NCBI GenBank assembly: GCA_025738555.1
Contig: JAOVFP010000007.1
Span: 434,001 to 498,000 of the forward strand
Length of the DNA: 64,000 nt
From: Cyathus striatus
Lineage: Eukaryota; Basidiomycota; Agaricomycetes; Agaricales; Nidulariaceae
Direction: 5' to 3'
Shown in pieces: positions 51,101 through 61,400 of the stretch. A model generated the notes under the pieces. That model made no database searches and was not told the origin of the DNA. It saw only the letters and a program-made list of their open reading frames with translations. The position numbers and the translations under genes are program-made. Position 1 is the stretch's first letter, and every line of letters starts with the position of its first letter.

Positions 51101-51108
51101 ACTAACTT

Positions 51109-51644
51109 ATGGAAAGCCAGACAACCATGCTCAACTAGATCAAAGCAGTTGAACTCCGACATTCGGCAAGACAGCAGTCGCTTAGATATGTTCTTAGGCG
51201 CATCTTGTTTGGCCAGAATTTCGGTTAACCGCTTAGTCCAAGCTTCAAGTCCTACTGTATTCGGATGCAAATGTAAGACTTGGTATTACAATAGAGTACT
51301 ATAGCATGTGTCGTTACTAATTATTTTGTACATTCACTTAAGTTCAATAGATACAATTAAGAAATAAGATGTTAAAAAAGTGTTTATGTTGTATAAACCT
51401 AGCTTTGAGATGAGACTCGTAACCTGAAAAAGCATACAGAGTGCAGTAGCATATGTCTACTGCTATTTTTCTAGTGAGTTGTTGGAATAGGGTTGATCAT
51501 GTCTGCAAGAATAGTCCACTGAATTTGTGTGTAATAGCTTGATGCGCACAGCAGGAGTTGAACTCGAGATCGAATGCGTGGGAGTTTGTCGCGTGATGTA
51601 AAAGTCACGAGCGTCGTTTCCTCCATGGAAACGATGCTCGTGAC
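51109..51644. repeat. Left terminal inverted repeat, 536 bp
   Basis: Starts ATGGAAAGCCAGACAACC at the outer end and finishes in a 41-bp hairpin (51,604-51,644). It retains many CpGs. The differences from the right arm that I found by eye are mostly CG against TG/CA. Its minus strand holds a coding-like frame (51,040-51,270) also present in the right arm. Confidence 0.93.
51604..51644. other. Hairpin at inner end of left terminal repeat
   Basis: Two 18-bp arms, GTCACGAGCGTCGTTTCC and its near-perfect complement, are separated by 5 bases. The same hairpin, in opposite orientation, ends the right repeat at 57,898-57,938. Confidence 0.85.
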
Positions 51645-51856
51645 TTACTCAAGTGTTGAGCCAGGTGCATTTCTTACAACACTGGCACATTGATTTTCAT
51701 TCATATTATAAATACATCATTGCTTATGTTCATTTAGAGATTGCATATTTCAATAGATGTACTGTGGATTGTTTCAAGTGGTAATAATACCTATCTACAG
51801 AGCTATTCTAATTGAAGTATCTGCAAGTACATATAACCAGCATATCAATTAATTTT

Positions 51857-53798
51857 TCACCAAGTACCATCTCCATTGATTGAGTCATCCTCATCTGAAG
51901 TGAAATTAACTTCAATTTCTGGAAATTCATGCTCCTCATAAATAACTGGATGGTCTGCATTCATCATAGCATCAAGCTGTGCTGAATGAGATTCATCTGG
52001 ACACAGCAATTTGTCAGAAAGTGAAGTATATATATTGAATACTTTCATTTACCTATTCCCCTCCCATTGTTCACACCACCCATGTAATACAATCCCTCTG
52101 CTGTAGCATTTTCAATCCCTCCTTCTAACTCTGAAAGGCCAGGTAATAAATCCATGGTATCATGATGATCACATAATGAAGTCCTAATAATTTCAGTCCA
52201 GGTATCCTGAATGCCAGGTGGGATGTCAATTCCTGACTGAATATCATTAAGGATTAACAAGTAGATATCCCAGACATTGTTCCTAGTAATAACTGGTGAA
52301 CCATGCCGTGAATATATGTCCTGAGCCAGATTAGAAAATGTTTCTGGTACTAGCTGGAATACAGAATCATTAGGTGGTGAAAACAATGCACATGCTTCCT
52401 GAATAGCCTCCATATTGACTGGTATCTTGCATACTGTTAGCATAAGAAATCATTTGTAAAAACGATAACTCACCTTGAAATCTAAGACACCATATTCATT
52501 TGGATTTTCAAAAATGTCATTAGGTATACCATGAGGAAGCACTTTGTTATGATCAGCACACTTTGCTGTATTGTTAACCCGGTCTTTGTAGCCATCAAGC
52601 TCACCCTGTAGCCAAGGAATAAATACCCATCGGAATACCATGCTATTGTGATAACTTGTAAGAATAAATATATTTTATATTATAGAAAATCACGAATGCT
52701 TCAATAGTATGGTCTGGGTGATACAAGTCTTCATTAATGCCCCTGTCAAGGATATCTTCAAATCCAGGAGTGAACCTTCGATGAAGCTGTGACCATGTTA
52801 TCTCAGATTTAACATTCTTCTTTGATCGCATCCAGCGGTGTTGAAGTGTTCCCTGAAGTGCAGGATCATGAAGGTGACGAAGAAATGTATGTCCATTGGC
52901 AAGTCCAAAATTTTCGGAGCCAGGGTCACTCTGAGTAACCAGAGGCATTGCTACATATATTTATTAATAATGGCCAATCTGAACAAAATTTTAAAAGGCT
53001 TACCACCAAGATTCTCAATAGTTTCAAGATAATATGCAAGAATAAGTTTAGGGTTACTATTAGTATGCCAAACCTTCAACCAATGAATCTTTCCAGCAAA
53101 TGGGTCGATGCTAGTATGTAAACCCAGACCAAATTTGTATTTCCACTTGTCGTGCTGATCCACTGCAATTATATCATTCACACCAGCAGCCCACCACCTC
53201 TTTCGACGCAGCCTTTGTGCATGCCGCTGCTGAACAAGCTCAGGCTCATAGAGAGCAAAGTATGATGTAACAATTTGCCTGAAATTCATAATAGTAAGTG
53301 AATGAAAAATTTGACATCAATAACATAAACAGACCTAGAGACTGCCATGTTCTCCTCATGAAATAGCAAACTCACCATCTCACGAGCACCAGCTTTTGGA
53401 TACTGAGTTCATAAGCAAATCATTGCTGGCCGGATGCTCTTGACATCATGATTTTGCTTCTGAGTTCGAAAAAGCCCCATTTTCTCATGCATTTCAATAA
53501 ACCTGGTCAAACTATTCATTTAATAAGTGTAAGCTTGATATATAATGTGAATAATAGTGAGCATAAAGTTACACAACTTACCCTAATCCATAACGAGTAT
53601 TATCCATGTGTTTTGTCCTCAAGTAATGAAGTATGTTCTTATCAGTGAGACACATTTTCCAGTACCTAAGTATGTGTGGGGCAATGTCATCGATAGGAGC
53701 TATGGCATAGAGAAATTAACAATGGTAAAACAATAAGTACACATGAATCCAAACTTACGGTTAGGATTATATTGATTTTTGCGTCCTGTTCTAGCCAT
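51857..53798 (-). pseudogene. Integrase core-domain (rve-like DDE) protein, near-intact
   Basis: The start at 53,798 (MARTGRKNQYNPN) splices through a 60-base-scale intron into PPIDDIAPHILRYWK. Further exons are separated by introns near 53,580-53,515, 53,340-53,280, 53,005-52,950, 52,690-52,640, 52,490-52,440 and 52,050-51,995. The catalytic core shows Asp in IIAVDQHDKWK (about 53,165), Asp in TQSDPGSENFG (about 52,930) and a Glu in HTIEA before FRWVFIPWLQ (about 52,710). It ends NGDGTW (51,857). This is the mushroom family annotated as integrase core domain protein, here likely the transposase of the element. One in-frame TGA (53,409-53,411, before TQYPKAGAREM) fits an Arg CGA decay, and I could not splice the junction near 52,640-52,690 cleanly. 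The copy may therefore be inactive or may have an exon I misread. Confidence 0.8.
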
Positions 53799-54839
53799 AA
53801 TTTCGATGTTGGTAATGACAGCAAGTAGTGTATACATGTGAGTGAATGAAGAAACAGTTGATTCGATTTTTTACTGTACCCCAAAGTATTTATATTGTCA
53901 ATCTTCTCTAAAAATACTTTGCAAGGCAGCTGTGCATAGCAAATCTACATAAAATAAATGTGCTACACATTACATAAAACATAAGCACTTTACCAGTCTG
54001 TATCTTTACAAATTTAATGATTACTCAGTCTAATAAGCGAAGATCCTATTACCAAGTTCCAATTTCATACTCACACAATGGGAAGTAATTAGTATTTAAT
54101 ATTAGCCATTGTTTTAGTTTCCTCATGCCTTACCAGGAGTCTTTTATCGCACTTCATGATAATTACTCTGGCCAACCTGTCAGTATCAAGCACATTGTAT
54201 TACATTCAGGTAACCACTAGCTGGTAATTATACTAAATCAAAGTAATTGGAGTTGATCATTCTCGGCTCTTGAGAGTCTTAGTATCACAAATGACATCAC
54301 AATCAGTCAAAATCTCTTAATATTTGCTGCATTGCCTTCGACTATACTATTTTATTTTGCTTCACACTCATTCAAAATATACACAATGAGCAAAATTTAC
54401 ATTTGGGTTATTTAACATCTTACCGTGCTCAACATCAAGCACATTATATTATGGTCAAGTAACTGCTTGCTTGTAATTATATTGAATAAGAGTAATCAGA
54501 GTTGATCATTCTCGGCTCTTGAGAGTCTTAGTATGGCAAATGACATAAAAATCAGTCAAATCCTTTTAATATTTGTTGCATTGCCTTCCACTATACTATC
54601 TATATTCCACTTCACGATCATCCAAAACGTGTGCGCTGGGTAAAATTTATGTTTGTTTATTTAATATCTTACCATGCGACATCACACATGAGGTATTTGT
54701 GAATTGTCGTGATTTCAGAACATCTGACTTATGATACGAGACATGATCTCACTAAAAATATAAATACCTTGTGAAATTCATCATATCTTCTCAGCAGCAC
54801 CTTTTATCCCACCACTTTCACTCTTTCATTGCTATCAAC
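53799..54839. promoter_or_regulatory. Divergent promoter region with tandem duplication
   Basis: The 1.04-kb spacer between the two start codons is AT-rich and contains a tandem duplication of about 249 bp: unit 1 about 54,185-54,433 and unit 2 about 54,434-54,682. The best conserved core is GTTGATCATTCTCGGCTCTT then GAGAGTCTTAGTAT. The two units differ at roughly one base in five. A TATAAATAC block at about 54,759 lies 80 bp before the kinase ATG. Confidence 0.6.
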
Positions 54840-57658
54840 ATGAACTTTGGTAATGCTGAAGCTATTGCTAAATTCACTGAAGATACACATGCAAGTGAAC
54901 CCATCCCATGTGGTAGAAGCAGCTGCTCAATCATTCTCCAGCCTGGTGACAGCAAGCACTATATTGCAGGTGGTACTCGCGGTAAATTTGTTTGTGATGG
55001 GTGCTTTGAATATTATGCAAAGAAACCAGATACACTTCTGAGTAAGTCTGAATTATTATTAGTATATGATGAAAATTTTCTCACACCAGATAGGGCCTGA
55101 TGTTGCAAGTCGCTTATCCAGTACAAATCGACAACTACCCACAGACTCCATCATAAGTATGTCTTTTATATTTTCATTTAACAATAATATACTAATATAC
55201 TTGATGTTTAGGCCCTGAAATTTCAGATCAGCTCAGTTCTGAAATTTATGAACAGAATTCAGTGGCTTCACGATCCAGTACTGTTGATGTACAGTCTATC
55301 AGAGCTTCTGTAAACCAGGCTCAAAGAAAAGGTATGTAATTAAATATTTTAACCATGATGTTTTTTGATATTTTGTTTAGATTCCAGTTTCCTTGCATGA
55401 AAGGTTACACATCTTCCAAATAGCCTTCCCTCAGCAGTACTGCAGCAATGGTCACATACACCTGATTCTACTCGTCAACTGCCAGCTGTGGGAATACCAA
55501 GTTCATGGTCAGCAAATGGTGGAAGCTATGCAGTGTCTCAACAAATTACTTCTTCAGGGTACTCTGGTTCACATTCACTCTATAAGACAGAGCAGGACAA
55601 GTACCAGCGATTTAGTTACCAGGGATGCCAATTTGAAACAATTAGCATTATAGTTCAGGCAGTCCGTGAGATTTCTGGTAAAACTAGGCCTGAGTTGATT
55701 TCGGTTTGTAACTAAATTATATTTTACTGTGAACACTATTGCTAATATACTTTGAGTAGAATCTACAAGAAGGCCACCAGAATATCCCAGCCATCATTAC
55801 ACCTTGGGACTTAATCAAATTGGTAGAGGATACAATGCTACCTCAACTTCGGAAGGCGATGCATTGGTTTCCATTTCAAACCAAGTCACTTACCATTCGT
55901 GAGCTTTGTAATTGGACAGATCTTGCATGCATGCAACAAGACCAGCCATATTTCTATAATCACTGTCTTGGACAAGGACAAGGCAAAGACAAGAAGAATG
56001 TATTCAAGATACCTTCAAAGCCATTTATATTAGGGCTTGTTGTTCCAGCATATTTGTGGGAAGAAAGCTTGGACTATGTTGCTGCTCAGGAGGTAGGAAG
56101 CACTACTAGTTTGTTTATATTCAAGCTAATCTTATATTGCTTTTATTTAGGATGTTAAAGTATGTCTATTTGTATAGACAAGTTCTATTAATGCTGACAT
56201 GCATTTCCTAGTTGCAAAATGAGTCCAATGATTTCAGTATATCTGACCAATTTGATTCCATGGTCAATGTAGACTCTGGTAGTACTCTGAACAATGCAAA
56301 AACCAGTCATTCAACTAGCTTGAATGGCAGCACTGCAGCTATTATGACACCAAAGAAGTCATTTGATTCAAAGAAACAAACTCATACAGTATGTATACTC
56401 ATTAATTATGTATGCAGTAGCACATCTAAACTTATTCCTAGAATACACTAAGCTCCTTGGAGTTATCACCAACATCTGCTCCATTAAAGAAGCGTATACA
56501 CACTTCAATTCCATATAAATCTCCAGATAGACTTAAGATCCATGAAGCATTAAAAGTTGGTGGACTATCAGCTAATATACAAGCTAATTCTGGTAAGCAG
56601 TTTATTCACATAATAACTATGCATACAAAATCACTAACACTCATATAAGCAAAATACAGAGTGGAGCAAATCCAGTTTTATACAATTCCTGAGATCAGTC
56701 TGGCAGAGCTTCTTGCTGAAAATACCAAAAAGTCCTTCTCTTTAATGGACCCATGTCCTGGTACACTAACCATCAATCATCTTGAGTCTATTGGTATTGG
56801 AGCTTGTAAAACTGCACATAAAGGGCTCCTTACACTCACTCCAATAGCAGAATCTGGTCTTGGAGATACATTAAACCAGCCTGTTGCTGTAAAGTGAGTT
56901 TACTTTCAGGATGATAGAAAAAGTACAAGAAATAGCTCTTCTCAGACAGGACTATCAATTGGACGGTTTGCAATTGATTCAGAGCTGACAAAGACACTAG
57001 TCAAGGCCAATGTTACCTACTGGGCAGCATCTCTACTGTCTTATTTGTATTCATACATCTCACAGGTGATATCAACCAAAGGAGAGCCTCCTTTCAAAAT
57101 CCCTGAGATACGCTTTGTGAAGGCTGGTGTTGGCATTGTTCATGACACTGCTGGTAGTAAGCCTGGTGGAAAGTCAGCAACAATGCACAATGTCTACTTG
57201 CTAGAAGAGTTCATCGAGAATGAAGGAAATGACTTCATAAAATTCATTCACAATGGTTCTGCTCGTCCTCTTCTAGATGGAAGTGATCCACTTTATGCCA
57301 TCGCAGAATTTCTCTGTTTCATGCAGCATATTCAGTATGAAAAAACTGATTCCTTGGTATATGTATCAGATCTACAAGGTGTGCAGTTTTACCATTTTAT
57401 TTTGAGTGTTCTTATATAATTTTTTATAATACAGGGAGTGCCACACTTTTATCTGACCCACAAATAATGACCGCACCGTGAGTTTATTTTTCAGCTACTC
57501 AAAGAGATAGAGTAACATTTCAATTAAGATCACTTGAAGATGATGCTGCCCTGTTTGGCCAGGGGAATGTGGGTTCTGCATTCAATAATTTTGCATCTGA
57601 GCATATTTGCAACAATTACTGTGAATGGTTTAACTTAACAACTCTCAATACAGCATAA
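54840..57658 (+). pseudogene. Alpha-kinase (MHCK/EF2K type) protein, near-intact
   Basis: The ATG at 54,840 (MNFGNAEAIAKF) opens an N-terminal Cys-rich module (CGRSSC ... FVCDGCFEYYAKKP) typical of mushroom alpha-kinase proteins. About ten exons follow. A low-complexity Ser/Thr-rich middle (56,200-56,600) leads to the kinase domain (about 56,660-57,658): a Lys in NQPVAVK, then FIKFIHNGSARPL, QHIQYEKTDSLVYVSDLQG, the catalytic LSDPQIMT (about 57,450) and the zinc-binding end FGQGNVG...SEHICNNYCEW (about 57,555-57,630). These are the hallmark alpha-kinase blocks. The stop is at 57,656-57,658. Defects: a TGA at 55,398-55,400 and an apparent frameshift at about 56,975-56,990, between YQLDGLQLI and SELTKTLVK. 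The protein would phosphorylate Ser/Thr; the substrate is unknown. It is divergent from the integrase gene and enclosed by the same terminal repeats, so it travels with the element. Confidence 0.82.
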
Positions 57659-57897
57659 AAATCTAGTGCCTTGCATGCTGTTACAAATTTGGAGTCATGT
57701 TAAGGATCTGTATGACCTTTTTATATGAGCTTGTAGGTACTTTGATTAGAATCACTCCATAAATAGGTCAATTATCTACTACTATGTTTGAAACAATCTA
57801 TAGTACCTTCAGTGAATTGTGCAATTTCTAAACAATGCATTACTGAATGATAATATTAATGGAGACGGTACTTGGTGAAAAATTAATTGTTATAAAG
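57659..57897. other. 3' flank of the kinase, with an inverted copy of the integrase gene end
   Basis: At 57,855-57,888 the sequence is the inverted copy of 51,847-51,880, that is, the last codons (INGDGTW, stop) and 3' flank of the integrase gene. On the left side 202 bases lie between this block and the hairpin; on the right only 9. Confidence 0.75.
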
Positions 57898-57938
57898 GTC
57901 ACGAGCATCGTTTCCATGGAGGAAACGACGCTCGTGAC
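57898..57938. other. Hairpin at inner end of right terminal repeat
   Basis: Inverted counterpart of 51,604-51,644, with arms GTCACGAGCATCGTTTCC and GGAAACGACGCTCGTGAC. Confidence 0.85.
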
Positions 57939-58433
57939 TTTTACATCACGCGACAAACTCCCACGCATTCGATCTCGAGTTCAACTCCTGCTGTGCGCAT
58001 CAAGCTATTACACACAAATTCAGTGGACTATTCTTGCAGACATGATCAACCCTATTCCAACAACTCACTAGAAAAATAGCAGTAGACATATGCTACTGCA
58101 CTCTGTATACTTTTTCAGGTTACGAGTCTCATCTCAAAGCTAGGTTTATACAACATAAACACTTTTTTAACATCTTATTTCTTAATTGTATCTATTGAAC
58201 TTAAGTGAATGTACAAAATAATTAGTAACGACACATGCTATAGTACTCTATTGTAATACCAAGTCTTACATTTGCATCCGAATACAGTAGGACTTGAAGC
58301 TTGGACTAAGCGGTTAACCGAAATTCTGGCCGAACAAGATGCGCCTAAGAACATATCTAAGCGACTGCCGTCTTGCCGAATGTCGGAGTTCAACTGCTTT
58401 GATCTAGTTGAGCATGGTTGTCCGGCTTTCCAT
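57898..58433. repeat. Right terminal inverted repeat, 536 bp
   Basis: Reverse complement of 51,109-51,644 with about four differences. The outer end reads GGTTGTCCGGCTTTCCAT. The plus strand contains the coding-like frame TVGLEAWTKRLTEILAEQDA (from about 58,275) that is also readable in the left arm with two amino-acid changes. Confidence 0.93.
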
Positions 58434-61400
58434 ACTAACTCACCCTCTTCTCACAGGACAACCTCAGATCCCCTTACTCAGTCGGGTCGGTCGCAGTCGA
58501 CTCGAGTCTCGGTGACCGGGGTGGGCTGAAATGGTTCCATGAGGTCTGGTGCGTCAGCCCAACCTTCTACTCTTTCATTCCTCTCTTCTAACTTACAGTA
58601 ATCAAATGATTACACTCGTTCCAGGCCTAAACTGTGCCCTCTGCTGTACTATGACTCTCCTTCCAAACTCGTCATTCCGAAGACGATAACCCCCCAGGTT
58701 GGAGGAGATAAGTCTTAAACGCATGGTATCCCTGCGCCACTTTCAACACCGATACTATTTCTGTTAAAAACGTTCCTTGCAACAATCACGCCTTTACTTT
58801 AAATGTCCTCAGCCCCTTCTGTTGTGTCGTCCTCTCTATCTACACCTACAATATGACATGCGAAACCCGGTGTTATAACGAAGGCTATCATTGCACGTGT
58901 GGTGGAAGTGTCGTCTCTCTAGTGCAAGTTGGAGTGAAAGGAGGGTTGAGGGTTATGGGCCGAAGAAGATGTAGGGTGGACCTGGATTTGCCTGGATGGA
59001 CCTGGTTTCCGTCCTTAACGACGGACGTGCACTGCTCCTTCACGCGTACGCACGAGGTGAACGGCATCGTCGCACATATTCAACCAGGATACATCTTTAT
59101 CATCCACCTCTCGTAGCTCATAAATCCTCCTCGGTGCCTTGCGCTCAATGATAACGACAACCACCTCGACAACCACAGCCACCCTACGACTCTTGCCACT
59201 AAGAGTGTGAAGGCAGGATCGTTACCTTCACCGCACGAGTTTCCTCAGACACCTGTATCGTCTCCATTATATGCGCCTCTTGCAACTCCTACGCTTCAAG
59301 TACTTGGGCAAGACCCGGCTTCCGCCCCTTCTCTGCTCCATATGCTACAATGAACATTGAGGCCCGCGAGGACTGAAATATGCGTCGGAGTGCGTAGGAT
59401 TGCGATGCGGGTTGTGGTTGTTGTGCCGTGTGGGAATTGTCGGGGTTATTGATTAAGGTGGAGCGGAAGGGGGCGGAGGCTTGGAAGTCGGGACGGCTCA
59501 CGAAGCATATGTCAATGTTGTGCCTATTCAGTGAGGTGGGCTCATGGTCGCTGAAGCTTATATCTTCCATTCTCACAGCGCTTCTTACGTTCTACATGGG
59601 CTCGATCGCCTTCACCTCTTCCTAAGCTTATGAAGAGACCGGATGATAGCGCCTACTTTCTTCAAAATGGCTTTCCTTATCGTCTCCAATTACTTGCATT
59701 GCTATCAGGCCATAGGCTGAGGAGCAAAGCCAGGAGGGTAGACTGCATTTGGACGCAGTCGAGGATCTGAATGACGTGGAATGCCGGGTCTATAACAGAT
59801 GCATACCTTGAGTCTTATTCAGAGATCGACCATCAATTGATTGTTTTCGTTTTTATCTGTGGTGCTGCGCGTAGGATCGTAGCAGTGAAAGATATTGTTG
59901 TTTACGCGGATGTAACATGGGCCCTGTTGAGAGGGTTGACCTGAAGGGGGATGGAGGATAAGGGGCCAAGTCGAGTACGGTGTAGGGTGGTCCCGGGTTC
60001 CGTCCTATCGTGTTCAGAAACCTACGATCATTAGGGGAAATCAAAGCTGGTTGTTTTGTTGTGCCAAGATATTTAATCGTTTCGTGTGAACCAGCTCTAG
60101 CCTCGGACAACCCAGTCGTTTTGTTTCACCCTTGATTTATTTCGTTTTGCCAAGAGGCTAGCTTTGATTTCCCCTATTTTCAGTGTCTCCGTCACATTCT
60201 CCGTTCTCTTCGCCACTTCCTACACCCACCGTGAATCCATATGGTAGAATGAAGAGAGAGTCTGTTTGATAGTGCCGCTATACTTCGCTGGGTGCTAGAT
60301 TCTGCAGTGGGATTAGATTTAAGAGCAGATGCTGGATGGTTCAACTTGTGCTCACTTGTGCGTGATGCGCTATGGTATGTTTGGGAGGGGGACGGTTGCT
60401 CAGCGTTGGGGGATCTTTCATATTGGTAGTCTGGTAGGTTCAACCACCCCCTGTTGCGCGTGGATCACAACTAATTTGAAGTTATCATAGCAGAACCACC
60501 ACTATTGTCGAAGGTTGAATTGCATTTTGGCCTCGTATCATTCGACAGAGGGGAAGAACCAATTCCCTATGACTGTTTAACTTACGCTGGCCTTTCGATC
60601 AAGGGTTATGAGGTAATTTCTTGTCACGACATGTCTTCCTGCCTTCACGTCTGGCTTCTGCTCCTGTAGGGATAAGAGGAGTGAGACTCTTCACTGAATC
60701 TATTACTGAAATGTGGCCTAGCAGCACGCCTGCAGGATTGAGTTGAGGATTTAATGAGCCAGGGAGACAATATATGTCCATTTGCGTTGGTGACACATTT
60801 CTCTTTGTAAAACCAGTGTCCACTCCTTCTACTGCCCCCCGATTTAGCTAGGAGGTATGTATATGTGGTTTGAGCATTATCTCTGGGCTACATGGAGCTG
60901 TAGGTATGTCTATCCATTCTTTCATGTATTGAAACGGTTCTCTGTATCCTGGTGCGTCACTCTACCATATACTCCTCTGTTCCTTGAAGCTTCCTTCTAA
61001 CTGTAAATGTCGTATAGTAATCAACGTTTCAGGCATAACCTATGCCCCCTGCCGTTCTACCACTGGAGGAGCTGTCTCTTCAATGCACGCTACCCCCGCG
61101 CCGCTTCCAACATCGATACTATCACGTTGGAAACACTCCTCACAGTACTAGCTTCTTGACTTCAATCGGTTTCAGCCTATTATGTGGTACCGTCACCTCT
61201 GTACCTACAATGGCGTCCTGCAAAGGAGAGTGAGAGGGTCAAGGGTCGCGGTATACGCTTAACCACAACCACTCTGCGTCCATGATCACAAGGATCACGA
61301 AGAATGCACACGGACCAGTAAGTTCTTTTCACCACGCGTATATCAGACAGTGTTGCCCCCAGGCCAGGCTCCGACTTCCAACTTCTATGATGGCTTCACG

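What the first reader, a model, noticed from the sequence alone, without database searches (positions are those of the whole stretch)
51109..58433. A transposon that carries a protein kinase: integrase-like gene plus alpha-kinase inside 536-bp terminal repeats
Seen directly: near-identical 536-bp inverted ends, an 8-bp target duplication (7 of 8 matching), and two divergent multi-exon genes that exactly fill the space between the ends. Known: alpha-kinases are atypical Ser/Thr kinases related to myosin heavy chain kinase and eEF2 kinase, and both they and the integrase-core protein family are numerous in mushroom genomes. Inference: the two families may be numerous because they spread together as one element, with the kinase serving regulation of transposition, host manipulation or element survival. 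I know of no described superfamily with this gene pair.
Basis: partly seen in the sequence, partly recalled or inferred. Interest (0 to 1): 0.88.

Follow-up and report, generated by a model that had tools for sequence, protein, structure and literature searches.

The report
Jumping gene carrying a protein kinase
This is a real cut-and-paste jumping element of a mushroom genome, fitting a known group called IS3EU, that travels with its own protein kinase; the pairing has been mentioned briefly in print, but here the kinase looks like a long-standing working part of the element rather than a chance passenger.

Summary
In the same 107-Mb genome, 12 of 16 copies with both tips in hand show a 6/6 duplication, and so do 4 of 4 more divergent families. 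Termini are TATGG..CCATA. These are published marks of the IS3EU superfamily, and Kojima 2025 already states that TET-carrying fungal IS3EU families have a transposase and an alpha-kinase in opposite orientations. So 'no described superfamily' is wrong. New here: 37 of 43 loci of this integrase clade have the kinase within 10 kb, 37 of 37 head to head (0.55 expected); kinase and integrase identities fall in step (Spearman 0.94); the kinase is constrained between families (dN/dS 0.11-0.19). A more distant family adds TET-like and JmjC-like genes (weak domain calls). Best reading: the kinase is a core gene serving the element, perhaps by countering silencing or licensing transposition; this role is inferred. 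The window copy is interrupted in both genes; another copy has both frames open.

The parts
51102..51107 (.). left target-site duplication CTAACT
   Evidence: identical to 58435-58440
51108..51644 (+). left terminal inverted repeat, begins TATGGAAAG
   Evidence: 537 bp, 4 mismatches to right arm
51842..51880 (+). inner 39-bp inverted repeat arm over the integrase 3' end
   Evidence: 92% to 57855-57893
51857..53798 (-). integrase/transposase gene (PF24764 rva_4), 8 exons: 53759-53798, 53582-53699, 53335-53502, 53004-53278, 52698-52950, 52474-52642, 52053-52425, 51857-51996; window copy has one premature in-frame stop
   Evidence: exons projected from copy L014, open for 511 aa; exon boundaries chosen by eye (GT-AG) and not checked against transcripts; Pfam
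54180..54350 (+). first of two 171-bp direct repeats between the divergent genes
   Evidence: family D1
54429..54599 (+). second 171-bp direct repeat, 85% identical
   Evidence: family D1
54840..57658 (+). alpha-kinase gene (PF02816), 11 exons: 54840-55041, 55094-55156, 55212-55331, 55381-55703, 55760-56092, 56151-56159, 56212-56388, 56442-56592, 56650-57378, 57435-57477, 57529-57658; window copy has two premature in-frame stops
   Evidence: exons projected from copy L014, open for 759 aa; exon boundaries chosen by eye; Pfam
57855..57893 (+). inner 39-bp inverted repeat arm next to the right TIR
57898..58434 (-). right terminal inverted repeat, ends CTTTCCATA
58435..58440 (.). right target-site duplication CTAACT

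Best explanation
The feature is a 7,327-bp copy of a terminal-inverted-repeat DNA transposon of the IS3EU kind. Shown: its ends, 6-bp duplications, copy number, two-gene architecture, and the head-to-head pairing of an integrase-fold transposase with an alpha-kinase in five families read in sequence in the same genome (main, L029, L030, C8, C23). Inferred from the fold family: the transposase binds the TATGG..CCATA ends, cuts, and joins them to target DNA with a 6-bp stagger. Inferred: the kinase is a core element gene, active as a kinase in intact copies, that works in trans for the element, most likely by phosphorylating a chromatin, repair or transposase protein so that the element escapes silencing or is licensed to move. 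The window copy itself is an inactivated insertion. Probability about 0.93 for the identity as an IS3EU-like kinase-carrying transposon, about 0.6 that the kinase serves the element, about 0.3 for silencing escape in particular.
Against: No direct evidence for kinase activity or any substrate. In short derivatives that keep the ends and the catalytic half of the kinase without integrase, the kinase is relaxed (dN/dS 0.86, 0.69 and 0.42 against L014; L027 against L028 is 0.21) and holds stops, so movement in trans does not need a working kinase in cis. Within the main family the values are higher: kinase 0.18-0.70, integrase 0.28-1.4 on few changes, as expected of decaying copies. 32 of 69 kinase loci have no integrase of the clade nearby. 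4 of 16 copies lack a perfect duplication. Several synonymous distances are near saturation, and the C8 integrase used holds stops. The kinase structure model was poor (mean pLDDT 41.6).
Confidence: 0.85

Rival explanations
1. The kinase is a passenger: a host kinase gene captured by an IS3EU element and carried along without serving it.
For: Kinases also occur without the integrase (32 of 69 loci); in three internal-deletion copies read the kinase decays; 11 further PF02816 loci lie outside the set found with this kinase.
Against: Same gene, same head-to-head order in families down to 44% identical in the kinase and 49% in the integrase; identities fall in step; purifying selection between families. 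Of the 6 of 43 integrase loci without a kinase hit, four were read: two keep kinase pieces (L019, L035) and two have only one element end in the stretch read and no kinase (L025, L036).
Confidence: 0.2
2. The kinase benefits the host or manipulates it (signalling, mating, development), and the transposon persists through this effect.
For: Alpha-kinases are active enzymes in known families (recalled); kinase constraint.
Against: The element is multi-copy and mostly inactivated: 14 of 15 long copies examined have at least one gene broken. Whether any copy is fixed at a conserved host locus, or expressed, was not examined.
Confidence: 0.12
3. A different long-TIR superfamily with an integrase: Polinton/Maverick or Ginger.
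For: Polintons have long TIRs and 6-bp duplications with a retroviral-like integrase (recalled).
Against: 7.3 kb with two genes; in the stop-to-stop ORF list no frame outside the two genes exceeds 101 aa, though polymerase and capsid families were not searched for. TA..TA ends and TAYGG fit IS3EU.
Confidence: 0.03

Closest known systems
IS3EU superfamily, fungal TET+ IS3EU families (Kojima 2025, PMC12730594)
   Same: 6-bp TSD, TAYGG..CCRTA termini, transposase and alpha-kinase in opposite orientations (passages)
   Different: No TET/JBP gene is seen between the two genes in the window element, and its ends are 537 bp (the paper says longer than 30 bp); the host is a mushroom, where the TET+ IS3EU passages seen name rusts and Tuber
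IS3EU/GingerRoot as described in Kojima and Bao 2023 (PMC10045372)
   Same: TA..TA termini, usually 6-bp TSD, DDD/E core without HHCC (passages)
   Different: 'kinase' has 0 occurrences in that text
Styx of Zymoseptoria (PMC10853768)
   Same: About 7.9 kb, 6-bp TSD, IS3EU-like transposase (passages)
   Different: 36-bp TIRs, four coding sequences; 'alpha-kinase' has 0 occurrences
Alpha-kinases with solved structures: TRP-related kinase 1ia9, myosin heavy chain kinase A, eEF2 kinase
   Same: C-lobe stretch DLQG, TDPQ, Gx(G/A)N and H-C-C
   Different: Only the C-terminal stretch aligns (profile 589-663 of 664); the N-terminal cysteine motif and the middle domain have no match there

Membership tests
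IS3EU | 6-bp target-site duplication | tested here: met
   12 of 16 main-family copies and 4 of 4 other families
IS3EU | TA..TA termini, TAYGG..CCRTA in fungi | tested here: met
   TATGG..CCATA in 16 of 16 copies and 4 of 4 other families; definition
IS3EU | DDD/E transposase of integrase fold | tested here: met
   catalytic residues assigned by inference
IS3EU | transposase clusters with Repbase IS3EU/GingerRoot in a tree | not testable with these tools
   no Repbase sequences on hand
TET+ IS3EU (Kojima 2025) | divergent transposase and alpha-kinase | tested here: met
   37 of 37 linked pairs divergent
TET+ IS3EU (Kojima 2025) | TET/JBP gene between transposase and kinase | tested here: inconclusive
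   none seen in the window element by reading its ORFs; the PF12851 search of the genome rang nowhere, controls included. A TET-like gene lies by the left end, not between the two genes, in the C23 family
Alpha-kinase (PF02816) | Pfam score above cut-off | tested here: met
   56.9 bits against 21.3 for the joined window pieces
Alpha-kinase (PF02816) | kinase activity | not testable with these tools
   sequence motifs only
Zisupton/KDZ | 8-bp TSD | tested here: not met
   flanks match over exactly 6 bp in 12 of 16 copies; 0 of 15 fit a 7-bp register; 8 bp for Zisupton is from a passage
Polinton/Maverick | polymerase and capsid genes | not tested
   no dedicated search

The most novel reading that the evidence does not exclude
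The kinase belongs to a transposon-borne counter-silencing kit: in related IS3EU elements of the same genome the transposase and kinase are joined by a TET/JBP-like DNA dioxygenase and a JmjC-like gene, so one element would attack DNA methylation, histone methylation and, by phosphorylation, silencing or repair proteins together; and the large alpha-kinase expansions reported in rusts, and the many kinase loci seen here, would then be mostly transposon genes.
Probability: 0.25. Interest if true: 0.78.

Novelty: new member of a known kind. Interest (0 to 1): 0.52.

Why it matters
It shows an alpha-kinase as a stable, selected partner of a DNA transposase over deep divergence. In the library searched, the pairing appears in two adjacent sentences of one paper (one other paper listed, PMC13294678, was not opened). 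Expansions of alpha-kinases in fungi (for example rusts, PMC4469406 passage) may need re-reading as transposon load. It also gives a tractable question: what does a transposon phosphorylate?

Tried and rejected
Kinase-only short elements as a sign that the kinase helps in cis: rejected, their kinases are relaxed and interrupted. Intact integrase-only relatives: 6 of 43 integrase loci lacked a kinase hit; L019 and L035 keep kinase pieces, L025 and L036 show one element end and no kinase; C1:2234231 and C17:622166 were not read. Tet_JBP search of the genome: no hit, but the 14 controls were silent too. Kinase structure: poor model; Foldseek gave no hit at E<=0.001, the middle domain resembling ubiquitin-like and Ras-binding folds only at E 0.15 and weaker. 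PDB sequence searches with the TET-like and JmjC-like proteins: nothing significant (best for JmjC-like a lysine demethylase at E 0.39). PDB sequence search with the integrase profile: no match at E<=1; the fold match came from the model. L031 TIR: not found at first because the left end lay outside the stretch; found.

Rows left out: L022 and L026 aligned badly (identity 0.84 and 0.87), so their stops were left out of the 44-of-52 count; both were kept in the 14-of-15 count. L018, L019, L024, L025 and L026 were left out of the 16 because a tip was missing or unread, and the 16-kb element at C14:2437739 was not fetched. The 27 other rva_4 loci were grouped by eye from 60 hits (150 of 217 candidates scored). 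The contig-length pairs were matched by eye.

Papers: PMC12730594 abstract, outline, passages and Discussion part 1; PMC10045372, PMC10853768, PMC4469406 and PMC5295586 passages only; the others search listing only. The names Polinton, Ginger and TRPM7, and the reading of HRD..HSN and HxWHID as dioxygenase marks, are recalled.

Full report
Observation. The window (G000:C7:434001-498000) holds two 537-bp inverted arms at 51108-51644 and 57898-58434 with 4 mismatches. Comparing copies fixes the ends: the 16 copies with both tips read TATGGAA..TTCCATA, so the palindromic TA belongs to the repeat and the target duplication is 6 bp. In the window it is CTAACT on both sides.

Mobility. The TIR gives 57 hits in the genome, 40 long and 17 of about 45 bp; this is a lower bound, since 40 of 176 candidates were scored. 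I fetched 20 further stretches. With the window, 16 copies have both tips in hand: 12 have a 6/6 duplication, one 5/6, and three match at 4, 2 and 1 of 6 positions; of those, L023 has inverted instead of direct flanks. L018, L019, L024, L025 and L026 were not counted because a tip was missing or unread.

Genes. The minus-strand gene is an integrase (PF24764) and the plus-strand gene an alpha-kinase (PF02816) (joined window pieces). Copy L014 is open in both: 511 aa and 759 aa, with exon boundaries placed by eye. Of 15 long copies examined, 14 have at least one gene interrupted. In the 12 of those 14 that align well, 44 of 52 premature stops fall at codons that are CGA in L014 (counted; many are shared between copies, so they are not independent events). 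Of 141 differences between L014 and the window copy, 71 are transitions at CpG sites, 50 with the CpG kept in L014 and 21 with it kept in the window. This fits decay of a methylated repeat; methylation was not measured. The window copy has one stop in the integrase and two in the kinase.

Transposase. A model of the Cyathus relative P0010 from 44 sequences (mean pLDDT 79.4) matches integrases and DDE transposases: IstA, TnsB, retroviral integrases. No solved structure was found by sequence. Conserved D124, D184 and E225 sit in the matching region; that they are the catalytic triad is inferred. Kinase: the C-terminal stretch of a profile of 8 relatives aligns to the TRP-related kinase and myosin heavy chain kinase A, and the motifs seen there are kept in L014, with SDPQ for TDPQ. 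The kinase model was poor.

Linkage within the genome. Merged hits give 69 kinase loci, some of them short fragments, and 43 integrase loci. 37 of 43 integrase loci have a kinase within 10 kb, against 0.55 expected from random placement; 37 of 37 are divergent. Of 27 other rva_4 loci from the family search, 1 has a kinase within 10 kb, a weak hit. So one integrase clade, not the whole domain family, carries the kinase.

Deep association. Across the 37 pairs, kinase identity to the query runs from 44 to 100% and integrase identity from 49 to 97%, with Spearman 0.94; the 21 pairs I placed outside the main family give 0.95 (rows entered by hand, spans differ and copies are not independent). Three other families read in full have TIRs of 865, at least 313, and 301 bp and perfect TSDs. 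The most divergent, C23:197115-211897, is 14.8 kb; its right end was found where two copies stop matching and its left end by pattern, with CTTATA on both sides.

Selection. Nei-Gojobori on the long kinase exon gives dN/dS 0.11-0.19 in the 6 comparisons among L014, L029, L030 and the C8 element; a seventh, with L031, is saturated. The integrase gives 0.04-0.13 in the 7 of 14 comparisons where dS was finite; the C8 integrase holds stops. Within the main family (L014 against L010, the window, L024 and L017) the kinase gives 0.18, 0.21, 0.70 and 0.43 and the integrase pieces 0.28-1.4 on few changes, as expected after insertion. Short elements with ends and half a kinase but no integrase (L023, L027, L028) give 0.86, 0.69 and 0.42 against L014 and carry stops, so their kinases do not look maintained; L027 against L028 is 0.21. 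L027 and L028 still have perfect TSDs, so they probably moved in trans.

Other species. In the protein collection, 9 of 28 kinases share both species and contig length with an integrase among the 120 of 506 listed: Tephrocybe rancida (consecutive locus tags), Mycena vitilis, M. olivaceomarginata twice, M. filopes, M. polygramma, M. galericulata, M. citricolor and Cyathus striatus. For the other 19 no match was seen in the listed part. Equal contig length is a proxy, and 3 of the 9 contigs exceed 1 Mb, so it shows the same contig rather than adjacency. The closest integrase (89%) is from Cyathus striatus, so the host is probably a related mushroom.

Comparison with the known. IS3EU: TA..TA ends and usually 6-bp TSDs (PMC10045372); [quoted passage not shown] Those sentences cover the window's architecture apart from the TET gene. 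It was the only paper held that has both 'alpha-kinase' and 'IS3EU'.

Extended relatives. The C23 element has, besides the pair, a gene by its left end and a further gene upstream of the integrase. For the first, 1 of 3 relatives scanned gives Tet_JBP as its one Pfam hit at E 0.015, under the cut-off, and the other 2 give nothing. The second has an HxWHIDSRGxGT stretch that I read as JmjC-like by eye; Pfam gives nothing for 3 of 3 scanned and the PDB search only E 0.39. Both genes recur with the pair at C10:2594746-2607944 and C16:1987730-2000925; the JmjC-like gene also with the pair at C10:117366-124147; and both at C3 and C5 without a detected pair. If the domain calls hold, these elements carry several chromatin-acting genes.

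How it works. Shown: ends, duplications, architecture, constraint, linkage. Inferred: cut-and-paste by the DDE protein; kinase activity; benefit to the element. Silencing escape is weakly preferred because copies decay through CpG sites and relatives carry dioxygenase-like genes, but nothing here excludes licensing, passenger status or a host effect.

Noticed in passing
L041:265-1163 (C23:197264-198162); C10:2594746, C16:1999529, C3:4794450, C5:2623408: TET/JBP-like dioxygenase gene (HRD..HSN..R motif by eye; Tet_JBP E 0.015 for one of three relatives) beside the left TIR of a 14.8-kb IS3EU relative and in four other places.
   Followed up: partly
L031:563-1054 (C23:204362-204850); C10:117366, C10:2601172, C16:1994063, C3:4803128, C5:2611205, and more distant hits on C16, C18 and C9: JmjC-like gene inside the same extended elements, upstream of the integrase; the domain call rests on motif only.
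   Followed up: partly
C3:4794450-4803610 and C5:2611205-2624523: TET-like and JmjC-like genes together without a detected integrase or kinase of this clade; perhaps another transposon lineage sharing the cargo.
   Followed up: no
L023 (C9:2518542-2521488): Flanks are inverted, not direct: AGTGCTTCAGTA left, TACTGAAGCACT right, so the inverted repeat runs about 10 bp past the element's TA end on each side.
   Followed up: no
window 51733-51880 and 57721-57893: Inside the 99%-identical TIRs the two ends remain homologous but diverged (74% over 112 bp, 92% over 39 bp covering the integrase 3' end), as if one end had been copied onto the other and only the outer 537 bp kept homogeneous.
   Followed up: partly
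window 54180-54599: Two 171-bp direct repeats, 85% identical, between the divergent genes; candidate regulatory repeats.
   Followed up: no
G000:C10:1220401-1224898 and C10:1501170-1505666; C10:2603629-2607944 and C16:1987730-1992048: Pairs of element loci with identical kinase and integrase search scores, suggesting very recent copies or segmental duplication.
   Followed up: no
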